Assembly: GCA_943735955.1 (NCBI GenBank)
Contig: OX030957.1
Location: forward strand, 8,639,844-8,703,843
Length of the DNA stretch: 64,000 nucleotides
From: Piscicola geometra
Taxonomy: Eukaryota > Annelida > Clitellata > Hirudinida > Piscicolidae
Direction of reading: 5' to 3'
Shown here: one piece after another, positions 6,401 to 52,041 of the stretch
How positions within the stretch are numbered: position 1 is the stretch's first letter
How the letters are laid out: each line of letters opens with the position of its first letter
Notes under the pieces: model-generated
Databases searched by the model: none
Told to the model about the DNA's origin: nothing
Seen by the model: the letters and a program-made list of their open reading frames with translations, nothing else
Made by a program: the position numbers and the translations under genes

Positions 6401-6461
6401 TGTACTTGTCAGAAACCCCGACTGTCTTCAAACTATCAGAAATGAGTTTCTTAACTTCCAT
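3402..6461 (-). CDS. DHX16: DEAH-box pre-mRNA splicing helicase DHX16 (Prp2-type)
   Basis: ATP-dependent RNA helicase of the DEAH family. In this family DHX16/Prp2 remodels the activated spliceosome before the first splicing step in the nucleus. The 1,019-residue frame is intact and without introns. Residues 80-280 are charged, lysine/serine/glutamate-rich, as in DHX16. The helicase core follows: Walker A GETGSGKT (396-403), TQPRRVAA (425-432), DEAH (494-497), SAT (526-528), TNIAETSLT (648-656) and QRSGRAGRV (695-703), then the usual C-terminal extension. Length matches animal DHX16 (about 1,040). The Met at 6,461 is chosen because it opens a conserved-looking N-terminus. A minus-strand AATAAA lies at 3,281-3,286. 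It is divergent from PLXDC with 372 bases between the start codons. DHX8 or DHX15 are less likely because their N-termini differ. The lack of introns, when neighbours are split, is notable. Confidence 0.95.
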   Translation of the reverse strand: MEVKKLISDSLKTVGVSDKYITEYLLAISKEYASYDLFLERVNKDKLLEVGDTFYKNLWPKLPHKATSVRQSELDAERAKQVELKKRSYNLILSDNDDDDQEINKSLKEKSKKSKKSQKSLRSRKESESEDETVMKRPGHFKKEVSSSEDEKEMRARNEFSERLKERDKEKTRKIMSKSDKKAAEEALKRLKMETSNQEIDFANLRKVSRREYMGKRQKDKFEDLEMELEDEKYIFGDVKLTKREKIDLQYKEQLLNLGKELKSVTESEKQNKYHLPEPGRNINVPYFDDYSEKGADYEQHKWENENIQNATSSYGARDAKMYAKKEEYELILDEEIEFMKDECMPGSGDLEEEGPSADDLKRKSIEENKESLPIFAYKRDLLEAIREHQVLIIEGETGSGKTTQLPQYLHEAGFTRNGQKIGCTQPRRVAAMSVSKRVSEEMRVKLGNEVGYSIRFEDCTSERTVIKYMTDGMLLREFLNEPDLASYSVMIIDEAHERTLHTDILFGLMKDIICLRSDMKLIISSATLDAEKFSSFFNDAPIFRIPGRRFPVDIYYTKTPEADYIDAAVISILQIHVTQALGDVLVFLTGQEEIETVQELLLERTRKLGKKLKEMIILPIYANLPTDMQAKVFIPTPPGARKVVLATNIAETSLTIDGIVFVIDIGFCKMNSYNARTGIESLVVTPISKAMANQRSGRAGRVSAGKCFRLYTQWTYLKELEENTIPEIQRVNLANVVLMLKSLGIDDLLHFEFMDRPPHENLIQALELLYALAAFNKKGQLTMVGRKMAEFPVDPQISKMILASEKYKCVEEIITIASMLSVNSNIFYRPKNKLLLADTARKNFNLQPNALGDHFTLLNVYTRWVETEYSTQWCYENYVQHRSLKRARDVREQLEGLLERVEIDITSSSDTEAIRKAITAGFFYHTASLSRSGEYKTVKHQQNVFMHPNSCLIDDRPRWILYHELVFTTKDYMRQIVAIENAWLLEVAPHFYKSKGLDYGATKKMPKQTGKSRKQLTR

Positions 6462-6833
6462 ATGAATATTTCAATCTGATTAATTACTTAAAAACACGGA
6501 AACTTTATTAGAGAAACAATGAGCTGAAAATGTGTTTAAACTTAGACCTAAGTATTCACAAGTAATTATTTTTTATATATAATTTTTAAAAAAAGATTTA
6601 TCAAAATTTTATAATATAAAGTCTTAATAATCTAACTTATTTAACTTTTTTTGCCAGTTCATATATAATTCAATTATTATCTATTCAGTATTTTATAAAT
6701 TTTTCAATACTATACAAGTATTTTCAAATTTAATCATAGTTCATTCAAACAAAATATTTTAATAATTATACATTTTTTCAAAATTGTCTTTGCTGTTGTT
6801 TAAGGAGATCTTTAACAGTTAATCTTGATAAAA
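6462..6833. promoter_or_regulatory. divergent promoter region between DHX16 and PLXDC
   Basis: Only 372 AT-rich bases separate the start codons of the minus-strand helicase and the plus-strand receptor. Both genes' 5' UTRs and promoters must lie here unless there are unseen upstream exons, so a bidirectional promoter is inferred. No convincing TATA box position or CpG-rich island can be picked out. Confidence 0.5.
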
Positions 6834-9800: not shown

Positions 9801-12800
9801 AAGAAACAATGGGCGACGGGATGGCCTAGCGGTAAGAAACTTGGCATTCGGCTCACTAACGTTTGTTTTAAATGTTTTGATTCGTATCGTCGCCTAAGTG
9901 CATAAATTCTCCAAAAGAGCCTTGCATTTTATGTGATATCCCTTATTTAAGAGACGAGATTTTCAAACTTTTATTTCGAACATAATTTTCAAGCCGCCCA
10001 TTTAAAAACTCGAATGTATATAAGATGTTTGAAAAATGTAATTTTTTAAATACGTTATAAAATAAGTAGTTTTCAAAAAAAAACAGCTGATTATTCTATT
10101 CCTAGATAATAGTCCCACGCTTGATCCTGGACAAGAACACTAGTGCTGTTGCTTGCACTGAGGATGCACTCTCCGGAGCTCGAACGACTGGCAGACCAGC
10201 AACCTTCCATGCTGAAACACGCCAAAGTGCACTCCAAACCACTCTTCTTTGCCAGTCTGGCCATTTCGAAGTTGCTCTGGTGGAAACCTTCGAACATTTG
10301 CCACTTGAATGCTTTCTTGATCTCAACTACAAACGCTTCAATCTCGCATATTGTGAGATAACCAGGGGATGGTTCAGGCTGCTGCACGATTAGGTACTTA
10401 GAGAAGGGGATGGGAAGAACGCAATACACCGTGAAGGGACCAGTTCCATCAATCGTATTCGGGTATTGAGCACATATATGGTACGTGCCTCTGACCACAT
10501 CAATATCTCCGAGGTCAATTGTAGAAAGGCCTACAATGAAGTTGTCTAGCCGAAACCTAAAACTATTTCTGCCATACACTGACACCTTTCCAACTATGTA
10601 GAAGTTCTGCATGTCGCAAAGCCACCAGGTTCCCTCTGAATGGGAACACGCGCCAACGTGTAAATATGGATCAAAGTTTCCGTCCACGGCATATGCAGGT
10701 TCATATGTTGCATAAGTCCCATTCTGTTTGGCAGGCTTGTTCAGGAGGATGTTGTAGGTGGAAACTGAGGGAGTAAATGCACTTATATGCACGATGAATT
10801 CCCAATTAGAATGACATGAATAAGTAAAAAAAACTTTTAATTTTTATTTTAAAACTTACAATTATTCGAAGAAGCCCTCAGCTGACAATTCACCACAAGC
10901 ACAAAAATTAATATAATCATAATAACTATTATTCTTTTGTTTACCTGAAACAACATTCTGTCTGTAAACTCACCAAGCATTGATAAAGGAGCTTGAACAG
11001 AAGTTTATATACGCATCTCAGTGCACAAAAGAATCTTTTCATATATTATTCTCTTTTTACTAAATACCAGCAGCCGTATTCACAAAGCTCAGATAACTAA
11101 ACGAGCCGTTTAACACAACGTTCTGTCAAAAAAAGACTAAACATGCTGTTACTAAACAGAGCGCTTAAATTAGTATTCACAAACACCTGTTAGGCTCGTC
11201 GTTTAGTAGCAGACGTCTTTAAGCAAAACAAATATTATTATTTTCTATGTTTTGTGCGATAGTTGAAATTATTTGCATTTCTAGTACGAGTTATATTTTA
11301 GTAGCTTTTATTTAACACATTTATATATTAATTAATCAATTATGATGAATGAAAGTTTAATAGAAGATAAAAAAAGAAGACGAAAAGCGTTTAATGATGA
11401 AGAAAAGTGGTCCTTAGTTGAGTTTTTTGAGGAGAATAAGAATGTATTGTGTAGAGACGGGAGAGCTGCGGCATTAAAAAGAAAGAATGCTGCTTGGAAA
11501 GAAGTAATTTTTGATTTTTTAATTTAATTTATTATACAAATCATTAATATTAATTACTATAAATTTACTAGGTTTTGAATCTATAGAATTTCTATCTATA
11601 TAAATTTTTATTTAAAATAGTTATTTTAAAAGATTGTTAATGAAGTGAAAAAGTTTTCTGCACAAAAAAGAGAATATGTAAACATTAAAGTGCTATGGAA
11701 TAATTTATTGAGGAAGTCAAAGAAAGAAATCTGGGATAATAAAAGGCACAAGACTGGTGGTGTGTCAGTAATAATAATTTCACCAATAAGTTTAAAAATT
11801 TATCAAATATATAGGGAAAATTCTCCGACATACCATGGTTTAGTAAGGGTATTATCAAAATTTAATTCAAGATGGAAAACAATTTGAACCAGTAGAGGGT
11901 TCAAGCTATACACAAGAAGGCCCTAAAAATGTGAAATTGACATTGAAACAGATGATGATGATAATAATAGTAATAACAATGATAATAACAATAATAATAA
12001 TAACAAAAATAAAGGGAAGAAAAACAACAGAAAGTAAATCAAGTAAACTTATATAATGAAGTGTTGATAGAGGAGAAAAAAATTTGATTGCTGAAACTAA
12101 CTATTATAATGTAAAAACAAAAATTTGTGATTTGAAACTCAACTTTTTATTGATAGAACAGGAAAAACTGAAAAACGAGTTACTCATTAATTAATAAAAA
12201 TATTGGTGTTGTTGATTGTATATTACTAAACAATACTTAATTGAAATGTCGAAAGGCAAAATCATCACGATAGTTAAATGCATTATCATTAACATAATTT
12301 TCACTGTCATCTTCATTATCAGCCTCTTGTTCATCATCAATGCAATTATCAGCCAACAATAGGCCTAAATTATGGAGAACAGCACAGGCACCAATTACTT
12401 TGGTAACTTTTCAGGATTGAGTCTCAATTCTCCATGCAAGTGTGAAACCTTCTTTCCATCTTCCAAACACTTGTTCAATTAAAACTTGAGTTTTTTTGTG
12501 ACTGGTATTAAATTTTTTCTTATATAATGTGTCTGGATTGAGGTATGGAGTGAGTAGGCAAGTTGAACACGGGTAACCTGAATCTCCCAGTATAATACCT
12601 TTATAAGTTTCATTTATTAGTTTCTGGCTGATGGCTGATTCTTTCAATACCATCGAGTCATGTGTACTTACAGGCCATTTGGCGACAGTATCAATAAATT
12701 GTCCTTTGTGGTTACAAATACATTGATCATTTATTGAATGGTAGGATTTCCTGTTTACATAGGAATATTCATGTTCTGTTGGACTTTGAATTCTTATGTG

Positions 12801-15800
12801 AGTACAATCAATAAGACAAACTACATGTGGGAAATTGGCAATGTCATAAAAAGTCTTTTTAATGGTGTCTTGATGAGTTACTGGATAAACTATATATTTA
12901 TCAAGTTTATTAACGATCGAATCAGTAACTTTTTTTATTTTTCGGCTTACACTTGGTTGACTAATAGTTATAGTTGAATCACCAATTACTTGCTGAAATG
13001 GACCGCAAGCAATCAATAATTTATTCATTGGTGAAATGGGATTATTTCTTTTTGTGTCGGCAGTTAATTCGTCTCTAAAGACACGTTCAATGTACACCAG
13101 TGATGCTCTTCTGAACCTAAAACGTTGAAAGAGCTCCTCATCATTGAATATTTGAAGAGGGTCATTTCTATCTCTTAAAGTCTTCTCTACAAATTGATAA
13201 CGCCTCAAAGTTTGTTTTTTTCTTAATAGTCGCGACATAATTAAATGGACAAAAAATTTAAAAAAATAGTTTAAAATTATAGGGTCTAATTATTTTATTT
13301 CATTAATTTTATTTTATTAATTTTTTAAATATTTTTTAATTGTATTTATTATATTTTATTTAATTGTATTTATTATATTTTATTTAATTGTATTTATTAT
13401 ATTTTATTTAATTGTATTTATTATATTTTATTTAATTGTATTTATTATATTTTATTTAATTGTATTTATTATATTTTATTTAATTGTATTTATTATATTT
13501 TATTTAATTGTATTTATTATATTTTATTTAATTGTATTTATTATATTTTATTTAATTGTATTTATTATATTTATTTATTCTTTTTAAAATTTTATTTAGT
13601 ATTCATAATATTGCTTAACGGTGGTACTAGGCATTGTTAAAAAATGATAGGTTTAAATGATGCGTTCAACAGTCTGTTACGCTAACAACCCACTTATTAA
13701 CAGCGCTGTTAATTTAAATGCTCTGTTAGCTCTTAATGACGTTTTGTGAATGCGGTCCCAGCAGTTTAATGGAATCCTCTTGTTTCTTGTTAAGAAGAAA
13801 ATGGCTTCATAAATTGAGAGGTTGTTCAAGTGAAGTCAGAATATCGCATACACACGACAAGTTTATAATTATTAAAATATTTTATCTGAAAAACTATGGT
13901 TAAATCGTTTAACATATTTCAAGTAATAAAAAATGTGTGAAATACTAAATGGAGAATAAACTGAAATATATCTGTGGGTCTTTTGGCATAATATCCTCCT
14001 CATTACGCCTTCGAAGCTTGTCATACAGTTCGCATCAAATTTAGTAAGCAATAATCACCAACAATCCTGGATACCGTTCCAAATGAATGATCTATAGTCT
14101 ATAGGCTATAGAACTCAGGCTAAACTTCTGCTATAGCCTTAGGCAGTTTTTCTGAGTTATCTTGATGTCATCTTTCTTTGAGCAACTGTTTAAACGTTTT
14201 TTTATTTTTGGCGTCTCACAGTTTTCGAGTTATTTCTACATCACTCTCACTTTCCATCTTCTGCACTCTCCTGTTTCTTCTACATCGTCCAATTCTGAAG
14301 CTCTACATTAGTTCTTTAGTCATCAGTGTGTTCAGTTTTCTAAAAATTAACGCGGGTTTCATGACACAAAGCCCTTCTTTGCGACAGTTCAAGATGTTTT
14401 TTACTTAATTTTCACTTTGATTTTTTTGCGTATACTCCACATTTTAATGCCGCTGTGAACTTTTGTGAGATTTTCCCATTTCGACTGCATTGGAAGGTTT
14501 TAGAGGCTATCTACCTGTCTCTAATTTGTTGATTCAACATACGGGGCCATCTGTTGAGAGGAACGGGCAGTGTCATGGGTTTCCTCCAAGGCATTTTTGT
14601 GTCAAGAAGCATTCTGCAAACTTTGAGACGGAAAGATTGTGTAGTCACCATCGTTAAAATTGTTATTTTCTATAAGTCCCCGATATCTGTTGCTTAAAAA
14701 ATGATCCATCATTCTACTCTGCAACATTCATCCGCTGCAAAAACAACCACACTACCATCGACACACTACAGTTTTTTGCTTTAAATAATCAAACACTATA
14801 CTGCAACAACCACCACACCACACCATCATCGACACAAAACCACCGACTCACCGACACACCACACCACTACACCACCATTAACGCACACTACACTACCATC
14901 GACACCCACCCATACAGGCTTTCTGTACATGAGTGACTTCTTGCACCAATGGCTCACAGCGACGCAGTACATCGCGCCCTTGATGGCGAACTTTGACACG
15001 CAGATAGGCAACGACTCTCACATCAGATTCTTCGACGACGGTAGGTCCTTCGCCGCTCAGCTTTCGATGAATACAGAATTCCATTTTTGAGATTTATAAC
15101 TTTGTTCTTTTCCATCTCCATTGCGCTCAAAAACGTCTTTTAATCTTGCATTAATATTATTTAATTGTTAATTATATTATTAATATTAATTTAGGTTACA
15201 ATGTAACATTGTAGAATTTATGTATTATTTTCTAGCAATTCAGTTTTCAGGATAAGTATTTTAATTCTTGTTTGTAAACTGCTCTGTGCAGGCAAGATGT
15301 TCGTCGTATGGTGGGAAAACATTCACTTGCAAGACGAGACCTCAGGTATCTTCATCATCATCATCCTCCACCTCCTCTTCATCATCATCATTACATCATC
15401 ATCATCTTCACCACCACTTCCATCATCACCATCACTACCTCTATCACGCCTTCATCCCCCATCACCGCCACCCCTATCACCGCCACCCCTATCACCGCCA
15501 CCCCTATCACCGCCACCCCTAACACCGCCACCCCTATCACCGCCACCCCCATCACCGCCTTCCAACCACACACCCCTCACCAGGCCACTACAGTTTCCAG
15601 GCACAACTGCACGCGAACGGCACGGTGGTCTTCTGCTACAAGGACCTTCCGATCAAAAACCCCACCAGCATGCCCTCGAACAGACACCCCGTCAAGGTGG
15701 GCCTCTCGGACGCCTACTACATGGACAAGCCCACCAACACCGGTGGGTGTGTTGGCGAGGGTGGGTGGGTGTGTGGTTGCATGGGTGGGTGTGTGGTTGC

Positions 15801-20324: not shown

Positions 20325-22413
20325 CTAAGTAGACAATGGACTTGCGCCGAGGGAGAACTTTTCGCTGTGGTTTTGTCGCTGCTGGTTGTTGTTCTCTGAT
20401 GGTTGTTGTTCTTTGTTAGTTGTTGTTCTCTGATGGTTGTTGTTCTTTGTTGGTTGTTGTTCTCTTTTGATTGTTGTTGGCTGTTGGTTATTGTTGGCTG
20501 CTGGTTGTTGGTCGCTGTTGGTTGTTGCTCGTCTCTGGTTGTTGCTCGCTGCTGATTGTTGGTGGCTGCTGGTCGCAGATCGCTGCTGTTTTTCTTTTCT
20601 GCGGAAGCGCTTTTCACTGGCAAGCCGACGAATCTCTGCTTCCCCCGCTTCTAGTCCCATGCGCACAGCTTGCCTCCATCTGCTTTTATCTTCAGCAAGC
20701 GATTCCCAGGTGCTGACGTAGATCTCTGGAGATTTTAGATCGCGCTTGCAGACGTCCTTGTAGCGAAGGTATGGCCTGCCAGTTGCTCTCCAGCCTGAAG
20801 CAAGCTCGCCGAACTGCACGTCTTTGGGAAGTCGAATATCATCCATCCGACGTACATGTCCTAACCATCGGAGACGTCTTTGACGAAGAAGAGTGGTCAT
20901 GCTTGGAATGGCTGCCCTCGCCAACACCTCGTTGTTTGTGACGCGGTCTTGCCATGAGATTCCGAGCATGCGTCGAAGACACCGCATGTGGAAAGCGCTC
21001 AATCTTTTTTCCTGGTATGCATATAGTGTCCAGGATTCACTGGCGTAAAGGAGAGTGCTCAGAACACATGCCTTGTACACAGCTATCTTTGTCTTTATTG
21101 TCAGCATCTTGTTGCTCCAAACTCTTGGTGACAGCCTGGCAAAGGTTGTCGAAACTTTGCCGATCCTCTGGTTCAGTTCTGCAACTAGTGAGTAGTCATC
21201 AGTGATTGTCGAACCAAGGTAGGTAAACTGGCTGACGCCTTCCAGAGCATGATAGTGATGTGAGGTCATTCGGCGTGCTGTGCCATCACCTGTGTTTTCT
21301 TGAGACTAATTTGTAGGCTAAACTCATCGCATGCCTTGGAAAACCTGTCGAGCAGTCTTTGCAGTTCTGCTTCAGTGTGGGCGACCAGTGCTGCATCATC
21401 CGCAAACAGCATGTCTCTTATCGTCAATTTTCGTATTTTGCTGTTTGCCTTCAGACGAGCCAAGTTGAAAAGACTGCCATCTGATCGGGAATGAAGATAT
21501 ACGCCTTCTGTTGATGCTCCAAAGGCACGTTTCAGCATAACAGCGAAGAAGATGCCGAAGAGGTGGGAGCGAGAACACAGCCTTGTTTGACGCCACTGCG
21601 GATTTCAAAAGCACTTGATGTCGATCCATCGTACTGCACAGTGCTTTTCATATTGTCGTGAAACGACTTCATCACGCTCAGGAGCTTTGGTGGGCAGCCA
21701 ATCTTTGCCAGAATGTTGAAGAGTCCATCCCTACTGACAAGATCAAACGCTTAGGTCAGGTCTATGAAAGCTAGGAAAAGGGGTTTGTGTTGTTCTCTGC
21801 CTTTTTCTTGCAGTTGTCTGAGTGTGAAGATCATATCTATGGTTGACCTTTCTGCGCGAAACCCAGCTTGTGATTCTGGATACACCCTATCAGCAAGCTT
21901 CTGTAATCTTTTTAGGACTACACGTGCGAACACTTTGGCCACGACACTGAGGAGAGATATTCCTCTGTAGTTGTTGCAATCACTTCTCTCGCCCTTGTTC
22001 TTGTATAAAGTGATTATTTTGGCGTCTCTCATGTCCTGAGGTACAGTTCCTTCTTCCCAGCATTGGCAGAGGAGACCGTGCAGTTGTTCTAGGAGGGCTG
22101 TGCTTCCGCATTTGATGACTTCTGGTGGTATGCCATCAGCCCCTGGAGCTTTCCCTGAAGACAAACTTTCAAAAGCCTTCTTTAATTCTGTAACACTGGG
22201 CTTTTCATCTAGTTCCATCATGAGTGGAAGAGTTTCAACTGCGGCAAGGGCTTCATCACTCACGTGATTCTGCTTGGAGTATAGGTCGGAGTAGTGTTCT
22301 ACCCAGCGGTCCATCTGCTTGCACTTATCGTCTATGATTGCACCAGTGGCAGACTTGAGTGGGGCTATAGTCTTCATAGTGCGACCTGTGGCTCTTTTAA
22401 TGCCGTCGTACAT
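20325..22413 (-). pseudogene. LINE reverse transcriptase and C-terminal region, broken
   Basis: RT domain in three open pieces. The first (21,751-22,413) has LSSGKAPGADGIPPEV, NYRGISLLS and QAGFRAERSTIDMIF. It ends at a TAA replacing the lysine before AFDLV. The second (21,266-21,538) carries the catalytic LFADDAALVAH (FADD at about 21,395-21,406). The third (20,325-21,269) has TYLGSTI, KACVLSTLLYASESW, WLGHVRRM and WESLAEDKSRWRQ. Its last 90 residues are N, Q and T repeats, produced by a GTT-rich minisatellite at 20,385-20,580. The element cannot make a functional RT. Confidence 0.85.
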
Positions 22414-22524
22414 GCCCTTGATGTCTCCAGTGTCGGATGATTGTTGAATCTTTTGGCATAGCTGAAGCCAGTAGTCATTAGCGCATTTTCTTGCTAATTT
22501 CTGAACTGCACTCTTGGAGAATCT

Positions 22525-23852
22525 TTACGCCTGTAGACTTTTTTTGCTGGGATGTAGCTTGTACTCCAGATGAGTTTTGCGGCGTTCTTCTATAGCTGGG
22601 ATGAGTGTGAAAGAGTGGGCTTCAAACCAATCGCTGTTTTTGTTCTGTTTCTTTCCAAAGACTTTGGACGCAGTCTTGTAAACCGTTTCCCTAATATGGT
22701 CCCAACGTTCTTTGGCTGTTCCGTCAGTAGGTTTTAGGTGGAACAAGTCCAAGAGATCTTGGTTAAACTGTGCCACTTTGTCTGGGTGGTTTGTTTTTCT
22801 CCCATCGATTCGGGGTTTTCCTTCAGGCCTGGACCGGTGAACTTTCTTGGGCTGGAGTCTCAGTTTGCAACAGACCAGAGAATGATCGGTATCACAATCA
22901 GTGCTGTGATAGGTGCGAGTATGTAGTACAAAGAAGATTGCCGGATGATGATCAGGTCGAGCTGGTGCCAGTGTTTAGATCGTGGGTGTCTCCACGAAAC
23001 TTTATGCTGTGGTTTCGTCTGGAAAAAATTGTTGATGATGCTGAGATTGTGATATGAGCACATCTTCAAGAGTCGCTGTCCATTTTCATTCATCTTTCCG
23101 ACACCAAATTTACCAAGACATGGTGACCAAGAGTAATGATCATCACCCACTCTTGCATTAAAGTCACCCAGCAGTATTAGTTGTTCTTCTTTAGGAATTT
23201 TGTTGAAAAGCGAATCTAGCTGGTCATAGAAATCGTCTTTGCAATCGCTTGATGCGTTAAGGGTTGGTGCATAGGCACTGATGAGGTTGACTAGCCCAGA
23301 AGCGGTGTGGAGACGGAGTGATAGAAGTCTTTCAGTTCCTTTTTGGCAAGGTTCTATCATTCCCAGCAGATGGTTCCGGACTGCAAAACCAACGCCGTAT
23401 TCTCTGTTGTGTTCAGCCCTTTTCTCTTGCCAAAAGAATGTGTGATCTTTTTCTCTAAGACTTCCAAAATCAGCTAGCCGAGTCTCCTGCAGTGTGGCAA
23501 TGTCGACCTGGAGTCTCACGAGTTCATCGTTGAAAACTGCAGTCTTTCGGACATCACTGATCATCTAGAGGTCTTGAGATAGCCCTGGTGTGAGTGTTCT
23601 CACATTCCGGGTGCCCAGTTTTAGAGCAGGTGTTTTTGTTTTGTTTTTAATCTTGTTTGCGGGTAAATAATAAGTCTGCTTGTCGAGTGTTGCAGCACTC
23701 TGAGCCCAACGCACCCAGTAGGGCAGGCAGACTGTGATGGAACAACACCTATTTGACTGGGGGCTGCCCAGCCTGAGGCGGGCGGTAGTTGTAAATAAGA
23801 CATGGCGATATTTCCCACTGTCGGAAGTAACCCCTGGCGCCATATGAAACAT
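22525..23852 (-). pseudogene. LINE endonuclease domain, broken
   Basis: Endonuclease that nicks target DNA to prime reverse transcription. Visible motifs: LKLGTRNVRTL, a TLQETRL segment (catalytic Glu), EYGVGFAV, NLISAYAPT, LLGDFNARVGDD (catalytic Asp/Asn) and SWRHPRSKHWHQLDLI. An in-frame TAG at 23,565-23,567 splits it. Near 22,900 the frame shifts so that the final DTDHSLV motif (catalytic Asp-His) falls in another frame. The linker frame at 22,525-22,776 continues towards the RT. Confidence 0.8.
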
Positions 23853-43088: not shown

Positions 43089-45156
43089 CTCAGAATGCTT
43101 TTGAAATAAAATTTAAATAAATTATTGTTTTGGGAATTTAAAAAGTCTGAAATATTTTTTAAATTCATAAAATTGAAATGTGGGCCATTTTGAAACTAAG
43201 TTCGGTGAACCCAAGGACTAAAATATATATGAGAAGCAAAAATAACAAAACAATTGCTTTACAAGCAAGATATAGTCGTAAGAAAAAGATTATTCCAAAG
43301 TCAAAATTTTTATCGCTCAAGACAAAAAGTTTTTAATAAAGTTTTTATATTTTTTATTGAGTCAGGGATAATTAGAGAATTTCATGGTTATTTAATGAAA
43401 TAAGCTTCTTAATCCAACGCAGAGAAAGTTTAGTGTTGTTTTAGACTTTTCAAAACGTCCAGAAAGTTTTACATCTTTTGAAAATTTTCTTCACAGAGTT
43501 TTGCGCTTTCTTTCATTGCAAAACTTTTGATTTCAAAGCTGAAAGTTTTTCACATAAAAAAATACTTTCAACAAATTCTATTCTGAAAGTGCACAGACCT
43601 TAACAATTAACTATGGTTTGCTGCTCAAAATATCTGTCTAAAATCGTGTTTTATAGAATAATGTTATCCCAAATGTGCAATTCTTCACATTTGGAAAAAA
43701 CATTCAACAAAACTTCACTCTATAAAGTTTGTTTTATAGAAGAGTCAAGAGTATTTATGGTGCTACCCTTGCTTCAACAATGGCGGTGCTTAAAGTTTAC
43801 TGTATGTCACAAACATCTGTAAAGAGAAAGACATTATAAAATGAAAGTCTACCTAATTGTCAATACATCCGTTTAATGAATCTTTTTGAAAGTATCTTTT
43901 TTTATGCGCTCTTTAAATCAAAAATTTAAATATGAAAGATCTTTAAACTACTTAGACAAGAATATTTCAGGAACAATCGATACAAAATATAAGATTTACT
44001 TAACATTAATTTGTATCATCAAAAGATTATGAAGTACAAGTTAAGGAAAAAGCATCCATCAGAATTTAATTGGCATATGCAGCATTTTTTGCAAGTTTTC
44101 ATTTTATAATTCGAGATAAATGTAGTATTTAAAATATGATTTAGTAAATTATATTATGTTTGTTTATTATAGTATATTAGCACACCACAAGTAAACCTCA
44201 CTGCAAAAATCATTGTTTATTTATACATGTTTTATTTCAAAAAGTTATAAACATTTCCAAGTTGCTAAAATTATGAGTTCAAAATCAAATAACTTCAAAT
44301 AATAAACTGCTTTTTTTTTGATAAGTTAATTTGAAAAACAAAATTATTAACTTAAAAAGTATTTTAAATTAAATAGTATAGTTTCTTTTTAAAATAACGT
44401 TACTATTTGAATTTTTCACTAGACATTTTTGAAAAATCAAACCAAAATACTATTACCGAGACATAAGTATATTTTAAATCTTTTAAAATAACAATGTTTT
44501 GAAACGGATAAAAAACTGAGTAAAGTTTTCATAAAAGAATTTGTAACGAGAAGGGAGAAATTTAACGGACCTCAAAAAAAGAAATTTAAGTTAGCCTGAC
44601 CAAGTAACCAAGACAACAAAAATAAGTGCGAGCTAAAACGATCTTTGTGAAAAGAATTCATGTTAGGTTTGTGAAATACGAGATGAAAAATATAGTTTGA
44701 ATAGTTTATTGTAATAGATTAACTAAGAAAAGTTTAGATTCAGTTGTTTCTCAACAAAAGACTAACATTTGTTAAAGATTCTTTGGCAAAGTACTTATGA
44801 TAAATAGAAGCCTGAGGATAAAAATAGAATTAAGACATAATGACCTGTAAGAGCTCACAAGCAAAGTGAATTATAAATTTTCTTTAAAAATGCCACTCAG
44901 GGTCCTTCCAAGTTTGGTCTACTTTCTTTTTGAGATCAGATGATATGCTTTCGTAATAATGGGCTTTATTCTGAATGCAATCGAAAAAAATAGAAAACTT
45001 TCTCTAGTGATAAATTTAAGCTCGTGAAAATTTAAGTAAAAATATTATTAGAAAATTAAAATGTAAGATATTTCAAGCAGGAAAGTGTATGAAGATGACT
45101 TCCTTTATGAGAAAAACTCTTTCCAGTGCGTATAATGCACTCATGAAAAGCTAATT
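43089..45156. other. AT-rich DNA left of the piggyBac element
   Basis: No convincing gene, repeat array or RNA. Short open frames such as 43,613-43,819 (plus) have AT-driven composition and no motif. Confidence 0.45.
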
Positions 45157-45183
45157 TAACCCTCTACTGCATGAATTAAAAAA

Positions 45184-45415
45184 AACGGTAAACGGATAAA
45201 AGGTCCTCCGGATAAAAAGTCCTCGGATAAAAAGTCCTCCGGATAAAAAGTCCTCCGGATAAAAAGTCCTCCGGATAAAAAGTCCTCCGGATAAAAAGTC
45301 CTCCGGATAAAAAGTCCTCCGGATAAAAAGCCCTCCGGATAAAAAGTCCTCCGGATAAAAAGTCCTCCGGATTAAAAGTTTTCCGGATAAAAAGTCTTCA
45401 GAATAAAAATCTTCA
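45184..45415. repeat. outer 16-bp array, left arm
   Basis: About 12 tandem copies of GGATAAAAAGTCCTCC starting with GGTAAACGGATAAAA, only 23 bases inside the piggyBac end. Array and following unique sequence to about 45,553 are the inverse of 50,103-50,437. Confidence 0.9.
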
Positions 45416-45584
45416 AAAAATTACTTTTCAAGGAAAAATACGTGATTAATACGTGATCCTTGATACTTTAAGAATAAAATTTAATACTTTTATCTAATGT
45501 TTGCTATGTTTTTTTCGTTCAATCTCGAAATAGCATTTGAATAAATTTGAATTGGTTGTGTTTGTTTCTTATTTTTAGCTTATG

Positions 45585-46610
45585 TTAGAAATATCAAATA
45601 GAAGACATGAAACTTTCAGAGTTTTATGAGAAATGTGGTTAGAGCTCCCAGGAGGGAAAGAATAATCGGGAATAAGAAGTGCTTTTTATATAATTTTAAT
45701 AACTTCAATGAATGTAAATAATTGTTAGAAATATTTTTAATTAACAAATACTGAGGAGAGATTAATTAATTAATAAATATCAAATAGAAGACATGAAACT
45801 TTCGGAGTTGTATGTGAAATGTGGTTAGAGCTCCAAGGAAGAAAAGAATAATCGGAAAGTAGAAGTGCTTTTATATAATTTTATTAATTTTAATGAATGT
45901 GAAAATTTTTTTTAGAAACAGTTTTAATTAACATATACAAAGAAGAGAGTAATTAATTAGGAAATATCAAATAGAAGACATGAATAATCTGGAGGAAAAA
46001 GTGCTAGGGCTTCAAATTGAGCACTAGTGCAAAGCTTGCAAGCTCCCACTGGAGGAAGAAGTGCTTTTTATATAAGACTAATTAATTATTTTAAATACTT
46101 TTTAGCAAGTGTAGGAAATATCACATAGAAAACATATATAATCTGGAGAAAGAAGTGCTAGGGTGTTAGATTGAGCTCCAGTGCAAAGCTTGCAAGCACC
46201 CACTGGAGGAAGAAGTGCATTTTACATAATTTTATTAACTTTTAATATTATTTTATTAACTTTTTATATTATTTTAGTATTTTTTTACATTATTTTATTA
46301 AGTTTTTATAATATTTAATAAACTTTTTATATAATTTAATTAACTTTTTATATAATTTAATTAACTTTTGTCATTTTATTAATTTTAATGAATGTAAAAT
46401 AATGTTTATAAAAAATTATAATTATCAAATACTAAGAAAAGACTAATTAATTAGTTTAAATATTTTGTAGCCAACTTAGGAAATATAAAATAGAAGACAT
46501 AATAATCTAGAAGAAGAAGTGCTAGGACCTCAGATTGAGCACCAGTGCAAATCTTGCAAGCACCCACTGGCTACCTAATTCACCAGGCAGATGAGCTCTG
46601 CAGTTGAAGG
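45585..46610. repeat. about 180-bp tandem repeat, five diverged units
   Basis: Units begin near 45,588, 45,775, 45,960, 46,110 and 46,485 with AATATCAAATAGAAGACATG and contain AAGAAGTGCTTTTTATATAA. Later units gain CAGTGCAAAGCTTGCAAGC. Between units 4 and 5 there is a short AT-rich expansion. They lie inside the outer inverted arms. Confidence 0.8.
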
Positions 46611-46989
46611 ACATACTGTCTTCTGAACGACTCTTCTTAATATGAAATTAATTGAAATAGTTATTTAATTAATTTATTAAAATAGTGAATTATTATTATT
46701 ATTTTGGTTAAATCAGTCATTCAGTCAGTCAGTCAGTCTATAGGACTATAAGCTGGAGTCTTGAACAACATTGGGTGCTTCAGTTTCTGTTTTTGCTACA
46801 TCTAGAACAGACTGTTTTAACTCATTTTATTATGGTTAATAATAGTTTAAAGCCTTTAGTATTTATATTATTATTTTATAAAACTGTAAAAATAATATTT
46901 TTAGTTGAATAATATATAGTATTTATTTTATTAATTTATAAAAATAATATTTTACATTTATAAAATTTTGAATAAATCAGTCAGTCAGA

Positions 46990-48030
46990 CTGGGGAACGG
47001 ACAAAAAGCCTCTCGGAGAAAAAGCCTTCGGATAAAATACCTTCTACAAAAAGCCTCCCGGAGAAAAAACCTCCTGGAGAAAAAGCCTCTCGGAGAAAAT
47101 GTCTCCTTTTTAATATTTTAGTATAAATAAAACGGACTTTTAATATAAAAAACGGATTTTTATAGATTCGTTTCACAATTTTAAATAAATAAAACGGACT
47201 TTTTATATATAAAAAGGATTTTTATAGATTCGTTTCACAATTTTGAATAAATAAAACGGACTATATATTTTTTTAAATACATACCTAAAACGATTTATCA
47301 AATACAATACAAATTATTGGTAAACGGATAAAAAGTCTTCAGGATGAAAAGTCTTCAAGATAAAAAGTCTTCAGGATAAAAAGTCTTCAGGATAAAAAGT
47401 CTTCAGGATAAAAAGTCTTCAGGATAAAAAGTCTTCAGGATAAAAATCTTCAGGATGAAAAGTCTTCAGGATAAAAAGTCTTCAGGATAAAAAGTCTTTA
47501 GGATAAAAAGTCTTCAGGATAAAAAGTCTTCAGGATAAAAAGTCTTCAGGATAAAAAATCTTCAGGATAAAAAGTCTTCAGGATAAAAAGTCTTCAGGAT
47601 AAAAATCTTCAGGATAAAAAGTCTTCAGGATAAAAAGTCTTCAGGATAAAAAGTCTTCAGGATAAAAAGTCTTCAGGATAAAAAGTTTTCAGGATAAAAA
47701 GTCTTCAGGATAAAAATTTTTCAGGATAAAAAGTCTTCATGATAAAAATTTTTCAAGATAAAAAGTCTTCAGGATAAAAAGTCTTCAGGATAAAAAGTCT
47801 TCAGGATAGAAAGTCTTCAGAATAAAAAGTCTTCAAGATAAAAAGACTTCAGGATAAAAAGTCTTCAGGATAAAAAGTCTTCAGGATAAAAAGTCTTCAG
47901 GATAAAAAGTCTTCAGGATAAAAAGCCTTCAAAAAAAATGTCTTCAGGATAAAAATTCTTTAGAATAAAAAGTCTTCAGGATAAAAAGTCTTCAGGATAA
48001 AAAGTCTTCAGGATAAAAAATCTTCAAAAA
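46990..48030. repeat. middle and inner arrays, left arm of inverted repeat
   Basis: First about 115 bases of GGAGAAAAAGCCTCYC-type units (46,990-47,105). Then AT-rich sequence with repeated AAAACGGACTTTT words. Then from GGTAAACGGATAAAAAGTC at 47,322 about 44 copies of GGATAAAAAGTCTTCA. The whole arm is the inverse of 48,400-49,455. Confidence 0.9.
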
Positions 48031-48399
48031 TTAATTTTGAAGGAAAAATAATCACGATCGAGAACCAGCAGGAAACTTAATGATTAAAGTGAGGAATCAA
48101 CATCCCAGTCAAATTTATTCAAATACTATTTCCAGACTGAAAAAAAAAGTGAGCAAACGTTAGATGAAAGTATGAAATTCCAATCTTTTAGTTTTAAGGA
48201 TCACGTATTCTTTCTTAAACATTATTTCCTTATGGTTAAAGTGACGAAACAACAACAGCCAAGTCAAATTTATTCAAATGCTATTTCGAGATTGAACGAA
48301 AAAATTAGATAAAAGTATCACATTTTATATTTTAAGTTTTAAGGATAACGTATTAATCACGTATTTTTTCTTAAAATTTAATTTATTTAAAAAAATTCT

Positions 48400-49455
48400 T
48401 AAAACTTTTTATCCTAAAGACTTTTTATCCTAAAGACTTTTTATCCTGAAGACTTTTTATTTTGAAAACTTTTTATCTTGAAGACTTTTTATCCTAAAGA
48501 CTTTTTATCCTGAAGAGTTTTTATCCTGAAGACTTTTTATCCTGAAGACTTTTTATCCTGAAGACATTTTATTCTGAAGGCTTTTCATCCTGAAAACTTT
48601 TTATCTTGAAGACTTTTTATCCTGAAAACTTTTTATCATGAAAACTTTTCATCCTGAAGACTTTTTATCCTGAAGACTTTTTATCCTGAAGACTTTTTAT
48701 CCTGAAGACTTTTTATTCTGAAGACTTTTTATCCTGAAGACATTTTATTCTGAAGGCTTTTATCCTGAAAAATTTTTATCTTGAAGATTTTTTATCCTGA
48801 AGACTTTTTATTCTGAAGACTTTTTATTCTGAAGACTTTTTATCCTGAAGACTTTTTATCCTGAAGACTTTTTATCCTGAAGACTTTTTATCCTGAAGAC
48901 TTTTTATTCTGAAGACTTTTTATCCTGAAGACTTTTTATCCTGAAGACTTTTTATCCTGAAGACTTTTTATCCTGAAGACTTTTTATTCTGAAGACTTTT
49001 TATCCTGAAGACTTTTTATCCTGAAGACTTTTTATCCTGAAGACTTTTTATCCTGAAGACTTTTTATCCGTTTACCAATAATTTTTATTGTATTTGATAA
49101 ATTAAAGTTCGTTTTAATTATGTATTTTTTAAAAATATAGTCCGTTTTATTTATTTAAAATTGTGAAACAAATCTATTAAATAAATAAAGTCCGTTATAG
49201 TTATAATTATAGTTCGTTTTAATTATGTAATTTTAAAAAAATATAGTTTGTTTTATTTATTTAAAATTGTGGTACGAATTTGTTTTTAAAAAATCCGTTT
49301 TTTATATAAAAAGTCCGTTTTATTTATACTAAAATATTAACAAGGAGGCTTTTTCTCCAAGAGACTTTTTCTCCAGGAGGTATTTTTTCCGGGAGGCTTT
49401 TTGTAGAAGGTATTTTATCCGAAGGCTTTTTCTCCGAGAGGCTTTTTATCCTACA
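48400..49455. repeat. inner and middle arrays, right arm of inverted repeat
   Basis: About 42 copies of TGAAGACTTTTTATCC ending GACTTTTTATCCGTTTACC at 49,080. Then come the inverse AT-rich spacer and the inverse GGCTTTTTCTCC units at 49,345-49,455. With the left arm it forms roughly 1 kb inverted arms around a loop of about 370 bases. Confidence 0.9.
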
Positions 49456-50102
49456 TCCAGTCAGACTATAGGCTATGTTCTTAAAAACTATTGGGGCACC
49501 ACAGTAAGACCTCCAACCAGTTTCCTCCATTCCTTTTGATTTTCTGATAGTCTCAAACAGCCCTTGAGTTCAAACCTTATCCACTCCACTATATTGTTCT
49601 ACTATCTTTCCTTTGTCTGCTTCTTTTTGTGCTCCCTGGTCAGTGATTTGAAGATAATTACAACACCACCATATATAATGTTGTGATGCTGAAGATGCTG
49701 TATTGGTAAAGACAATGATTCTGTGGCAATGACTATCATAGTGATGTGGGTGAGGTGAAGGGTGATTGAATTATTTTTTAATGTTGGTTGTTTTTTAAAT
49801 ATTTTCTAAATAAAACAATAAACATGTGTTTTATTTTATTTAATATTTAATACTCATCAAGAAGCAGCAGAAAACTTAATGATTAAAGTGAGGAATCAAC
49901 AACAACCAAGTCAAATTTATTCAAATCTTATTTCCAGATTAAAAGAAAAAAATAGAGCAAACATTAGATTAAAGTTTTAAATTTCAATCTTTTAGTTTTA
50001 AGGATCACGTATTCTTTTTTAAAGATTATTTCATTAAAGACTTTTTATAATCACGATCAAGAACCAGCAAACAATTTTATAGTTAAAGTGACGAAACAAC
50101 AA

Positions 50103-50437
50103 CAGCCAAGTCAAATTTATTCAAATGCTATTTCGAGATTGAACGAAAAAAATATAGCAAACATTAGATAAAAGTATTAAATTTTATTCTTAAAGTTTCA
50201 AGGATCACGTATTAATCACGTATTTTTTCTTGAAAAGTAATTTTTTGAAGATTTTTGTCCTGAAGACTTTTTATCCGGAAATTTTTAACCGGAGGACTTT
50301 TTATCCGGAGGACTTTTTATCCTGAGGACTTTTTATCCGGAGGACTTTTTATCCGGAGGACTTTTTATCCGGAGGACTTTTTATCCGGAGGACTTTTTAT
50401 CCGAGGACTTTTTATCCGGAGGACTTTTTATCCTAGA
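50103..50437. repeat. outer 16-bp array with adjoining unique segment, right arm
   Basis: About 150 bases of unique sequence, also present at 48,240-48,400, then about 11 copies of GGAGGACTTTTTATCC. The whole is the inverse of the left outer arm. It ends just before the piggyBac transposase remnant. Confidence 0.9.
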
Positions 50438-50701
50438 ACCAAAAAAAACTGTTAGGAATTACAAGTAATAAAATTTTTTCATATTAGTGTTAGGTTACAA
50501 AACAAGGGAAAATTATTTATATACAAATTTTTTCCCAATAAAGGTTGAAAATGAGCCAAAACATATTTGATGCCAATTGGCATCACCATGCACTTCCCAG
50601 TGAATCGAACACATTTTTTATATATTTATATATATTGTTTAACTTGTACAAAAAAACATTTTTTAAAAGTTTTTAAACAATATTATTGTTAAAAATTGTT
50701 G

Positions 50702-51589
50702 TTATTCAGTGTGAAAACGTTTGAAACAGTTTTTCTCCTTCGTAAAGCATAAACATATTTGGCATTTTTCACATCGAACGCGGGATTGACCATTGCAACC
50801 AGGTAAACGACAGCGAAGTCTTTCAGTAGCCCAAGTTGGCCAATGGCTAGTTCCATCTGTGCGAACCTCAGCAATTGGCAAATACTGTCCTTGTCGTCCC
50901 TTCTTCGTGATTTGAATTTGACTCTCCAAGCTTGGCCGACCTGCAGATCTCTTTTTGCTTATGCCTTTGCTTGCTTTACATAAACCTACAATAGAAAGAA
51001 AGCAAAAAATAAATGTATAGTAATTATTTATATCATCTAGTTGAAACAAGTTTCCGTCTTATTGTTTACCTTCTGCGATTTCGCCATTCCAGTATCTTCT
51101 GGTACTTGGTAAGACTACCAAGGACATCCCCATGGATATGCCCAGAAACTTTTCTAGTTCCGGAACAGTTAGCTACAGTGGTTTTTCAGAACGAGTTTGA
51201 GCAGAGTAAAGATTACTCTGCTCAACTATATGTTCTTTTAGTGTAGTTGAAAAAAATAATTCAAAAAAATGAGTAGGAGATTTCAAGTCCAGGATGTGAG
51301 AACCTAGACTCTCATCTCCTGAAAATGGTATTCTTCTGTCTGTTTCATTTTTTGTAGTTTTCCACAACAGTTTTCGTTTTGTTTTAGCTTTCATTTGTGT
51401 GCTAGTTAAAGGCATGTCTTCAACGTCACTGCTTTCTTCAGAACTTTCATCATTGTTTATAGGAGGCTTGTAGTCTTCATTCCTCTCATTGTCATCAGAC
51501 AGCTAACTGTCATCGCTTTCAATATAAATTGTTCTTGCAACTGTTTTAGTCCTCGATCCTTTTTTTCCTTGAAATGATTGAACATTCAT
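50702..51589 (-). pseudogene. piggyBac transposase, internally deleted
   Basis: Exon 1 (51071-51589 region, ending at donor GTAAAC) starts MNVQSFQGKKGS with an acidic N-terminus. It then shows the PGBD pattern: HFFELFFSTTLKEHIVEQSN, ELEKFLGISMGM and STRRYWNGEIAE. Two in-frame TAG codons interrupt it (51,503-51,505 and 51,173-51,175). After an 85-base intron, exon 2 (50702-50985, minus) encodes the C-terminal tail with GRPSLESQ, HWPTW and a Cys-rich zinc-binding end (RCRLPGCN, RCEKCQICLCF, NCFKRFH). The catalytic Asp core expected between the two parts (several hundred residues) is absent. The reading phase across the intron is conserved. Confidence 0.85.
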
Positions 51590-52041
51590 GTTTACAATCT
51601 AAAAAATCCAAAAACTCAAAATGATTAAGTTGTTTTCACTGATTTATATATTAGAAATAAAGCCCCGAGAGCTGCATGGTGATGCCATTTGGCATCGCAT
51701 ATTCATGTCTCAATCATAAACAAACCATTCGTCCTATCACTATGAAATAAATTTATTTATCAAGACAAATGATACGATTATCTAAAAAAAATTTTTTTAC
51801 TACTCAGATGTTAAAGAAAAACTTGTGAAACAGCGCTAAAGTAGTTGATATAAGCTCGATTTCCGGAAGTGCATAGATGAGAAATATAAACATAGATGAT
51901 AAAAAAAATATTCAAATTAAACGCTCTAGGGCGTTTACTATCTAAAAAAATTATCTAATGATTTATTTTGGCATTTTGAACTTCATGAAAAAGCATAGAA
52001 GTAGTGATGCCAATTGGCATCACTATGCAGTAGAGGGTTAA

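What the first reader, a model, noticed from the sequence alone, without database searches (positions are those of the whole stretch)
45161..52037. piggyBac element swollen by concentric inverted 16-bp arrays (nested foldback elements)
Seen: TTAA plus matching CCCTCTACTGCAT ends bound 6.9 kb. Inside are three layers of one 16-bp motif as inverted arrays: outer GGATAAAAAGTCCTCC (45.19/50.3 kb), middle GGAGAAAAAGCCTCYC (47.0/49.4 kb), inner GGATAAAAAGTCTTCA (47.3-48.0/48.4-49.1 kb). Each array type is homogeneous within its layer. Known: Drosophila FB and related foldback elements have long inverted ends made of short tandem repeats. Inferred: a foldback-like family that inserts into its own copies and rides in a piggyBac.
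Basis: partly seen in the sequence, partly recalled or inferred. Interest (0 to 1): 0.88.

Follow-up and report, generated by a model that had tools for sequence, protein, structure and literature searches.

The report
Nested foldback transposons in a leech
In what is very probably the fish leech genome, a small jumping gene has been invaded by a second one whose ends are long mirror-image rows of a 16-letter repeat, and that one by a third; the type is known from nematodes and mosquitoes, but the two-layered version seen here may show how such palindromes are built.

Summary
Window 45160-52037 is a piggyBac-like element interrupted by foldback A (45187-50440), itself interrupted by foldback B (46992-49458). 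Each insertion is shown by a 9-bp target-site duplication and by uninterrupted paralogues. One correction: the innermost arrays are not a third insertion; their flanks are inverted, not duplicated, and they belong to B. The genome is very probably the fish leech Piscicola geometra; hundreds of such ends exist in it. The same architecture (7-bp caps that differ between the two ends, then arrays of 14-16-bp units starting GGA-NAA, 8-9-bp duplications) encloses some of its MULE transposases, two of which were shown to carry a FLYWCH finger. B's left arm is 90% and its right arm 81% identical to the end of a MULE-coding element. So these are most likely non-autonomous foldback derivatives of Phantom/Muta-type Mutator transposons, nearest to Tm1 of root-knot nematodes and Muta1 of Aedes. 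Beyond those: a composite (roughly 150 copies, an estimate) whose arms carry ends of two lineages in tandem with mirrored junctions, and a 9.2-kb palindrome bounded by the same terminus on both sides. Both hint that foldbacks arise by inverted duplication of one end; that step is inferred. A's own transposase source was not found.

The parts
45160..52037 (.). piggyBac-like non-autonomous element (about 1.6 kb once the insert is discounted), TTAA at 45156-45159 and 52038-52041
   Evidence: ends CCCTCTACTGCAT / ATGCAGTAGAGGG; 11 of 11 other copies read (L044-L054) have these ends (one letter changed in L053) at TTAA and are uninterrupted; weak DDE_Tnp_1_7 match, below Pfam's cut-off
45178..45186 (.). 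left target-site duplication of foldback A, AAAAAAAAC
   Evidence: direct reading
50441..50449 (.). right target-site duplication of foldback A, AAAAAAAAC
   Evidence: direct reading
45187..50440 (.). foldback element A (caps GGTAAAC left, GGTTCTA right); 2778 bp without B and one copy of B's duplication
   Evidence: 13 A copies share both caps (L013 has GGCAAAC) and are 94.1-98.5% identical pairwise
45194..45409 (+). left 16-bp array of A
   Evidence: TRF
50252..50433 (-). right 16-bp array of A
   Evidence: TRF
46983..46991 (.). left target-site duplication of foldback B, AGTCAGACT
   Evidence: site uninterrupted in the 12 other A copies aligned
49459..49467 (.). right target-site duplication of foldback B, AGTCAGACT
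46992..49458 (.). foldback element B (caps GGGGAAC left, GGATGTA right), inserted in A
   Evidence: left arm 90.3% over 331 bp, right arm 81.1% over 380 bp, to the B2 end of MULE-coding element L041
46999..47103 (+). left outer array of B (GGAGAAAAAGCCTCTC type, heterogeneous)
49347..49451 (-). right outer array of B
47319..48026 (+). inner A1-type cap GGTAAAC and left inner array of B (layer C)
   Evidence: an exact inner cap lies 257-361 bp inside 39 of 78 exact B1 ends on C1-C6
48403..49076 (-). right inner array of B ending in the same cap (GTTTACC)
48027..48402 (.). core of B, related to the interior of A
   Evidence: 75.6% identity over 394 bp to A copy L010

Best explanation
A three-step nest of DNA transposons. 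A deleted piggyBac-like copy at a TTAA site was hit by foldback A (9-bp duplication AAAAAAAAC), and A was later hit by foldback B (9-bp duplication AGTCAGACT). A and B are non-autonomous members of a Mutator-like (MULE) group with FLYWCH-finger transposases (Phantom/Muta type), moved in trans by related MULEs. Each end is a 7-bp cap, different at the two ends, followed by an array of 14-16-bp units. The likely working model is that each unit is a transposase binding site and the cap is where strand cutting occurs; arrays lengthen and shorten by slippage or unequal exchange. B is a composite: B-lineage ends outside, A-lineage ends and core inside, amplified as one unit to roughly 150 copies (an estimate). 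Shown: structure, duplications, empty sites, kinship of B's ends to a MULE-coding element. Inferred: trans-mobilisation, binding-site role, and the origin of B by inverted duplication of one end that carried an A-type insertion.
For: Perfect 9-bp duplications in 11 of 15 A copies with both ends in a fetched locus, 8 bp in 3, 9 bp with one mismatch in 1; perfect in 4 of 5 composite B copies with both ends read. 11 of 11 other piggyBac copies read uninterrupted (10 independent sites, since two share flanks). The four B insertions lie at four different sites in A, each uninterrupted in most of the 12 other A copies (one or two with a local deletion there at two of the sites). MULE domain PF10551 95 times, 150 of 178 candidates scored. 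Of these 95, 10 lie less than 3 kb inward of a D-type cap, all on the opposite strand, and 0 outward; 9 lie inward of an exact B1 end (8 opposite strand, 1 same) and 3 outward (using 57 D places and the 100 B1 places listed of 203). FLYWCH+MULE in two frames of 452 and 456 aa; catalytic D174, D236, E366 invariant in 11 of 11 aligned proteins. D-type copy L025 with both ends and duplication CATTTATCA. B's left arm: 90.3% over 331 bp to L041's B2 end, 91-93% over 283 bp to the B1 ends of L039, L040 and L041, 88.5% over 339 bp to L042's. Of 78 exact B1 ends on C1-C6, 39 have an exact inner cap 257-361 bp inside, 15 more only in the far arm, 24 no exact one.
Against: No MULE carrying A's own caps was found, so which transposase moves A is open. 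77 of the 95 MULE hits have neither a D-type cap nor a listed B1 end within 3 kb. L041, the one B-type MULE copy with both ends in hand, has no matching target-site duplication; nor has the mirrored composite B in L023. B's right arm is only 81.1% identical to L041's end. FLYWCH was not detected in the three B-type frame pieces tested, and B-type frames are broken up (introns or decay). No binding or mobility was tested. Inner-type caps number 439 without B's AAATTATT flank in the pattern (1 mismatch allowed) against 308 with it (3 mismatches allowed), so some C-type ends, perhaps 130, seem to lie outside B; they were not read.
Confidence: 0.88

Rival explanations
1. Three independent foldback insertions, one inside the other.
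For: The inner arrays begin with GGTAAACGGATAAAAAG, the look of a transposon end, and the core is related to A.
Against: The inner flanks are inverted, not duplicated, in the four independent composites read, and both inner caps are A1-type (one letter changed at one end of L018), whereas A has two different caps. An exact inner cap sits inside 39 of 78 exact B1 ends, most often at 319 bp.
Confidence: 0.07
2. An old insertion of an A-like foldback into one B element, followed by arm-to-arm conversion that erased the duplication, rather than an inverted duplication of one end.
For: [quoted passage not shown] B keeps two different outer caps, which a plain inverted duplication would not.
Against: It needs conversion to have replaced one inner cap by the other. 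In A, arms of one copy are no more alike than arms of different copies (96.1% against 96.3%, 13 copies), so ongoing arm conversion is not seen there.
Confidence: 0.38
3. Drosophila FB or another transposase superfamily (P/Galileo, hAT, Merlin) behind look-alike ends.
For: Arrays in long inverted ends occur with different transposases; Galileo has a P-type one (PMC3688188, passages). A's own source was not found.
Against: Cap-plus-array ends enclose MULE domains in this genome; target-site duplications are 8-9 bp.
Confidence: 0.05
4. Assembly artefact of palindromes and tandem repeats.
For: Palindromes are hard to assemble, and one 9.2-kb palindrome has 99.66% identical arms.
Against: Many loci, each with its own unit counts, duplications and flanks; the published assembly used 76-fold HiFi reads (passages).
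Confidence: 0.02

Closest known systems
Tm1 of root-knot nematodes (PMC3169594; passages and the first part of the Discussion read)
   Same: Asymmetric 7-bp terminal motifs outside the inverted repeat, then GGA, then tandem repeats of about 14 bp; 9-bp duplications; FLYWCH + MULE transposase (Phantom); non-autonomous derivatives; even a copy with the same cap at both ends and no duplication.
   Different: Repeat sequence and unit length differ; called low copy there; no two-layered composite of two lineages in the passages read.
Muta1 and Muta5 of Aedes aegypti (PMC5225508; passages read)
   Same: 8-9-bp duplications; terminal motif of 10 or 8 bp followed by 9 copies of a 12- or 15-bp subterminal repeat; over 300 and over 200 derivatives, those of Muta1 with variable repeat number; Muta1 called a type 2 Foldback element and shown to move in yeast; grouped with Phantom elsewhere (PMC6446971, passages).
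   Different: Nine units per end, rather than 5-50 here; no nesting or composite arms in the passages read. FLYWCH occurs twice in that text, but not in the passages that I saw.
Plant MULEs with multiple long terminal inverted repeats (PMC3310237; abstract and Discussion read)
   Same: Arms carrying two ends in tandem, amplified; nested insertion with loss of the inner duplication is one proposed origin.
   Different: There the additional end is described as a duplicated TIR; here the inner end is of a different lineage from the outer one.
Tetris of Drosophila virilis (PMC4079207; passages read)
   Same: Foldback with tandem repeats in its inverted ends and 8-10-bp duplications.
   Different: Units of about 220 bp; transposase unknown there.
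Drosophila FB and sea-urchin TU foldbacks (recalled; not read here)
   Same: Long inverted ends made of short tandem repeats.
   Different: Host and repeat sequence; transposase kinship not compared.

Membership tests
Mutator-like elements (MULE) | MULE-domain transposase (PF10551) with D-D-E catalytic residues inside the element's ends | tested here: met
   met for D-type caps (10 of 95 MULE hits inward, 0 outward; L025) and B1 ends (9 inward, 3 outward; L041); catalytic triad in an 11-protein alignment that holds D- and E-type proteins but no B-type. The window copies A and B themselves show no transposase, and no MULE was found inside A's caps.
Mutator-like elements (MULE) | 8-11-bp target-site duplications | tested here: met
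   A: 11 of 15 perfect 9 bp, 3 of 15 8 bp, 1 with a mismatch; composite B: 4 of 5; not met in L041
Phantom/Muta group | N-terminal FLYWCH zinc finger on the transposase | tested here: inconclusive
   met for D- and E-type proteins L024 and L032; not detected in three B-type frame pieces; A's transposase unknown
Phantom/Muta group | Subterminal tandem repeats next to a short cap | tested here: met
   A, B, C, D and E types
Phantom/Muta group | Falls in the Phantom clade of a transposase tree | not tested
   no tree was built; the nearest named relatives of L024 are a bivalve and bdelloid rotifer proteins, below unnamed ones
Foldback elements (structural class) | Long inverted ends built of tandem repeats | tested here: met
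Drosophila FB | Sequence kinship to FB/NOF | not tested
   no FB sequence was compared
piggyBac | TTAA targets and CCC...GGG ends | tested here: met
   window plus 11 of 11 other copies read
piggyBac | DDE_Tnp_1_7 transposase | tested here: inconclusive
   only E 0.006, below Pfam's cut-off, over 33 residues; the copy is a remnant

The most novel reading that the evidence does not exclude
Foldback transposons of this family are born in one step, by transposase-linked inverted duplication anchored at a terminus, rather than by slow growth of the arms. The 9,166-bp palindrome on contig C1, bounded on both sides by the B2 terminus with arms 99.66% identical, would be a newborn; the inner layer of B, with identical A1 caps and mirrored junctions, would be an older product that was captured inside B and amplified to roughly 150 copies.
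Probability: 0.27. Interest if true: 0.62.

Novelty: new variant of a known kind. Interest (0 to 1): 0.42.

Why it matters
How foldback elements get their huge inverted ends is unsettled; the papers read here mention gradual expansion, slippage, recombination, acquisition and nested insertion. This genome holds, side by side, MULE-coding elements with short array ends, simple foldbacks, a two-lineage composite and a fresh-looking palindrome ending at a terminus, so the routes can be compared in one genome that was assembled from long reads. Palindromes of this size also promote breakage and rearrangement (recalled).

Tried and rejected
Third independent insertion for the inner layer: rejected on inverted flanks and identical caps. 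Ongoing gene conversion between the arms of A: not supported; arms of the same copy 96.1%, arms of different copies 96.3%, left arms among themselves 96.7%, right arms 97.7% (13 copies). Relatives of the transposase in viral contigs: none confirmed. Known RNA families in the window: 0 matches. Foldback elements in leeches in print: 0 papers hold 'leech', 'foldback' and 'transposable element' together, which covers only the held open-access library. Preference of B for A: 9 of 42 exact A1 ends on C1-C6 (the window's among them) have an exact B1 end 0.2-5.2 kb inward, 3 of 42 outward, 0.2 expected under uniform placement; clustering of both families explains part of it and the inward/outward contrast is weak. 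Both arms of B from the B2 side: 9 of 9 composite arms are nearer overall to the single MULE-coding B2 end than to four B1 ends, but at the 12 informative columns beyond the caps the window's arms are split (left 5 B1-type, 6 B2-type, 1 neither; right 6 and 6), so this is weak. Sampling: the A loci came from the first places listed (C1 and C2 only); of the five composite B copies read with both ends, the window's is the finding itself and the other four were fetched because A arrays lie there.
Full report
What is in the window. Reading the sequence gives an onion. The outermost skin is a piggyBac-like element, 45160-52037, with TTAA on both sides and ends CCCTCTACTGCAT / ATGCAGTAGAGGG. Inside it, at 45187-50440, lies foldback A: cap GGTAAAC, a 16-bp array, about 2.4 kb of interior (B discounted), the array inverted, cap GGTTCTA (read inward). 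It is flanked by the direct repeat AAAAAAAAC. Inside A, at 46992-49458, lies foldback B: cap GGGGAAC, a short heterogeneous array, a spacer, then a second cap GGTAAAC and about 44 units of GGATAAAAAGTCTTCA, a 0.4-kb core, and the same mirrored, ending in cap GGATGTA. It is flanked by the direct repeat AGTCAGACT. TRF gives the arrays and the unit counts are.

Evidence that these are insertions. In one search I listed caps and flanks in the window and in 15 loci fetched at the first places listed for the outer 32-mer (contigs C1 and C2). Of 15 A copies with both ends in one locus, 11 have a perfect 9-bp duplication, three an 8-bp one and one a 9-bp one with a mismatch. Of five composite B copies with both ends read, four have a perfect 9-bp duplication; the fifth is the mirrored copy in L023 described below. 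In one search the right part of the piggyBac element finds 54 matching pieces; the 11 other copies read (L044-L054, ten independent sites) run straight through A's insertion point, one of them (L053) with a changed A/T run there. Cutting B out of the four A copies that carry it and aligning 13 A copies shows four different insertion points; the site of the window's B is uninterrupted in all 12 other copies, and at two of the other sites one or two copies have a local deletion. A copies are 94.1-98.5% identical.

The inner layer is not a third insertion. Its flanks are CAAATTATT and AATAATTTT, mirror images, in the window, L016 and L018, with up to two letters changed in L017. Both inner caps are GGTAAAC, with one letter changed at the right one of L018, whereas A has two different caps. 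Among exact matches on contigs C1-C6, 39 of 78 B1 ends have an exact inner cap 257-361 bp inside (most often 319), 15 have one only in the far arm, and 24 have no exact one; MULE-coding B elements such as L039 and L041 are among the last. The span of paired inner caps runs from 439 to 3006 bp over 31 pairs. In L018 the two inner arrays meet almost head to head with no core left.

Copy numbers. A1 ends with up to two mismatches: 213+212, of which 73 are exact; the total includes inner caps, which differ from that pattern by two letters. Inner caps with flank: 155+153 (3 mismatches); without flank: 215+224 (1 mismatch). B1: 98+105; B2: 103+99; D caps: 29+28. Controls with the pattern read backwards gave 0, except 3 and 2 for B2. 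Roughly 150 composite copies is my estimate from 308 inner caps, two per copy.

The transposase. Pfam MULE finds 95 matches in this genome, with 150 of 178 candidates scored. Several lie in elements with ends of the same build. D type: caps GGTGCTA and CGTGGCC, 14-bp unit GGACAAAATGTCAC; L025 has both ends, 402-2942, and duplication CATTTATCA, with its frame in two pieces. E type: unit GCGACAAATTGTCCT. Against all 95 matches, 10 lie less than 3 kb inward of one of the 57 D caps, all on the opposite strand, and none outward; 9 lie inward of one of the 100 listed exact B1 ends (8 on the opposite strand, 1 on the same) and 3 outward; 77 lie near neither. L041 shows a B-type MULE element with both ends but no matching duplication. 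Frames L024 (452 aa) and L032 (456 aa) have FLYWCH plus MULE, while three B-type frame pieces gave MULE alone in one and nothing in two. D174, D236 and E366 are invariant across 11 proteins. The left arm of B in the window is 90.3% identical over 331 bp to L041's B2 end, 91-93% over 283 bp to the B1 ends of L039, L040 and L041 and 88.5% over 339 bp to that of L042; the right arm is only 81.1% over 380 bp to L041's B2 end and about 78-79% to B1 ends. The core of B is 75.6% identical over 394 bp to A's interior. A, B, C and D units share a GGA-NAAAA start, E units a GGA-CAA start; D and E units are near-palindromic, as might be expected of sites for a protein that binds in pairs (inference).

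How it probably works. Each cap-plus-array end is read by a FLYWCH-MULE transposase; repeated units give it more places to sit, as shown for the repeats of Galileo with an unrelated transposase (PMC3688188, passages). A and B carry ends only and are moved in trans. Array length drifts by slippage or unequal exchange. B began as a MULE-coding element of B type that acquired an A-type end. Its mirrored inner junctions and equal inner caps speak for an inverted duplication; its two different outer caps require that duplication, or a later exchange, to have stopped inside the outer array. In one search all nine composite arms are nearer overall to the one MULE-coding B2 end than to four B1 ends, but the informative columns beyond the caps are split about evenly, so the side of origin is not settled.

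A possible newborn. Loci L017 and L023 overlap and show a 9,166-bp palindrome on C1 (16130899-16140064): arms of 4,425 bp, 99.66% identical, 316-bp spacer, both outer boundaries exactly at a B2 terminus, with different flanks (TTTAAATAG and ATTATCATG). On the left, B is an ordinary insertion in A with its duplication; on the right it is not. A Tm1 copy with the same cap at both ends and no duplication has been reported (PMC3169594, Discussion).

The host. COX1 from contig C66 (15,135 bp) is 97% identical to that of Codonobdella sp., the best of the 120 listed, a piscicolid leech (title in the listing). The published Piscicola geometra assembly is 171.1 Mb in 69 scaffolds, 17 of them chromosomal, with a 15.1-kb mitochondrion; the genome here is 171.0 Mb in 66 contigs. 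Sizes of chromosomes 2 and 8 agree; chromosome 1 differs slightly (16.64 against 16.62 Mb) (passages). I take the host to be P. geometra, in a near version of that assembly.

Comparison. Tm1 matches feature by feature (asymmetric 7-bp ends, GGA, about 14-bp repeats, 9-bp duplications, FLYWCH and MULE). Muta1 and Muta5 of Aedes match in build and have 8-9-bp duplications. A survey of MULEs lists Phantom from flatworms, crustaceans, other arthropods, tunicates and an ichnovirus, not annelids; it lists annelids under Rehavkus (9-bp duplications, PHD finger) and, in the row as printed, under MULE-Trichinella (PMC6446971, passages). Tandem ends in plant MULEs are the nearest parallel to the two-layered arms. 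So the kind is known; the two-lineage composite is the variant. Searches of the literature were made, in an open-access library only; I do not claim that the composite is unreported elsewhere.

Noticed in passing
C1:16130899-16140064 (L017 and L023): 9,166-bp palindrome, arms 4,425 bp at 99.66%, both outer ends at a B2 terminus, different flanks.
   Followed up: partly
L041:405-6601: B-type MULE element without a matching duplication; a second B2 end in inverted orientation follows with the reverse complement of the first element's left flank, and the stretch between reappears inverted beyond it: a local rearrangement at transposon ends.
   Followed up: partly
L009:2231-9821: A copy of A inserted in another A (outer duplication TATGATTTA, inner 8-bp one).
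   Followed up: no
G000, e.g. C1:1680806/1681039, C2:701479/701748, C3:1471069/1471380: Pairs of A1-type caps, one mismatch each, only about 230-310 bp apart and facing each other, perhaps small symmetric foldbacks.
   Followed up: no
L041:4908-5793: 19-bp satellite-like array (46.6 copies, 98% match) inside the B-type MULE, related to the sequence at the inner junction of composite B.
   Followed up: no
window 12411-13289 (-): Open frame with a DDE_Tnp_4 transposase domain (E 2.9e-26), Harbinger-like by recall.
   Followed up: no
window 20325-23564 (-): Non-LTR retrotransposon remnant (by recall of its look); reverse transcriptase domain found in the one frame tested.
   Followed up: no
window 3402-6470 (-): DEAD/DEAH-box RNA helicase with HA2 and OB domains in one uninterrupted 1022-aa frame, DHX16-like by recall.
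   Followed up: no
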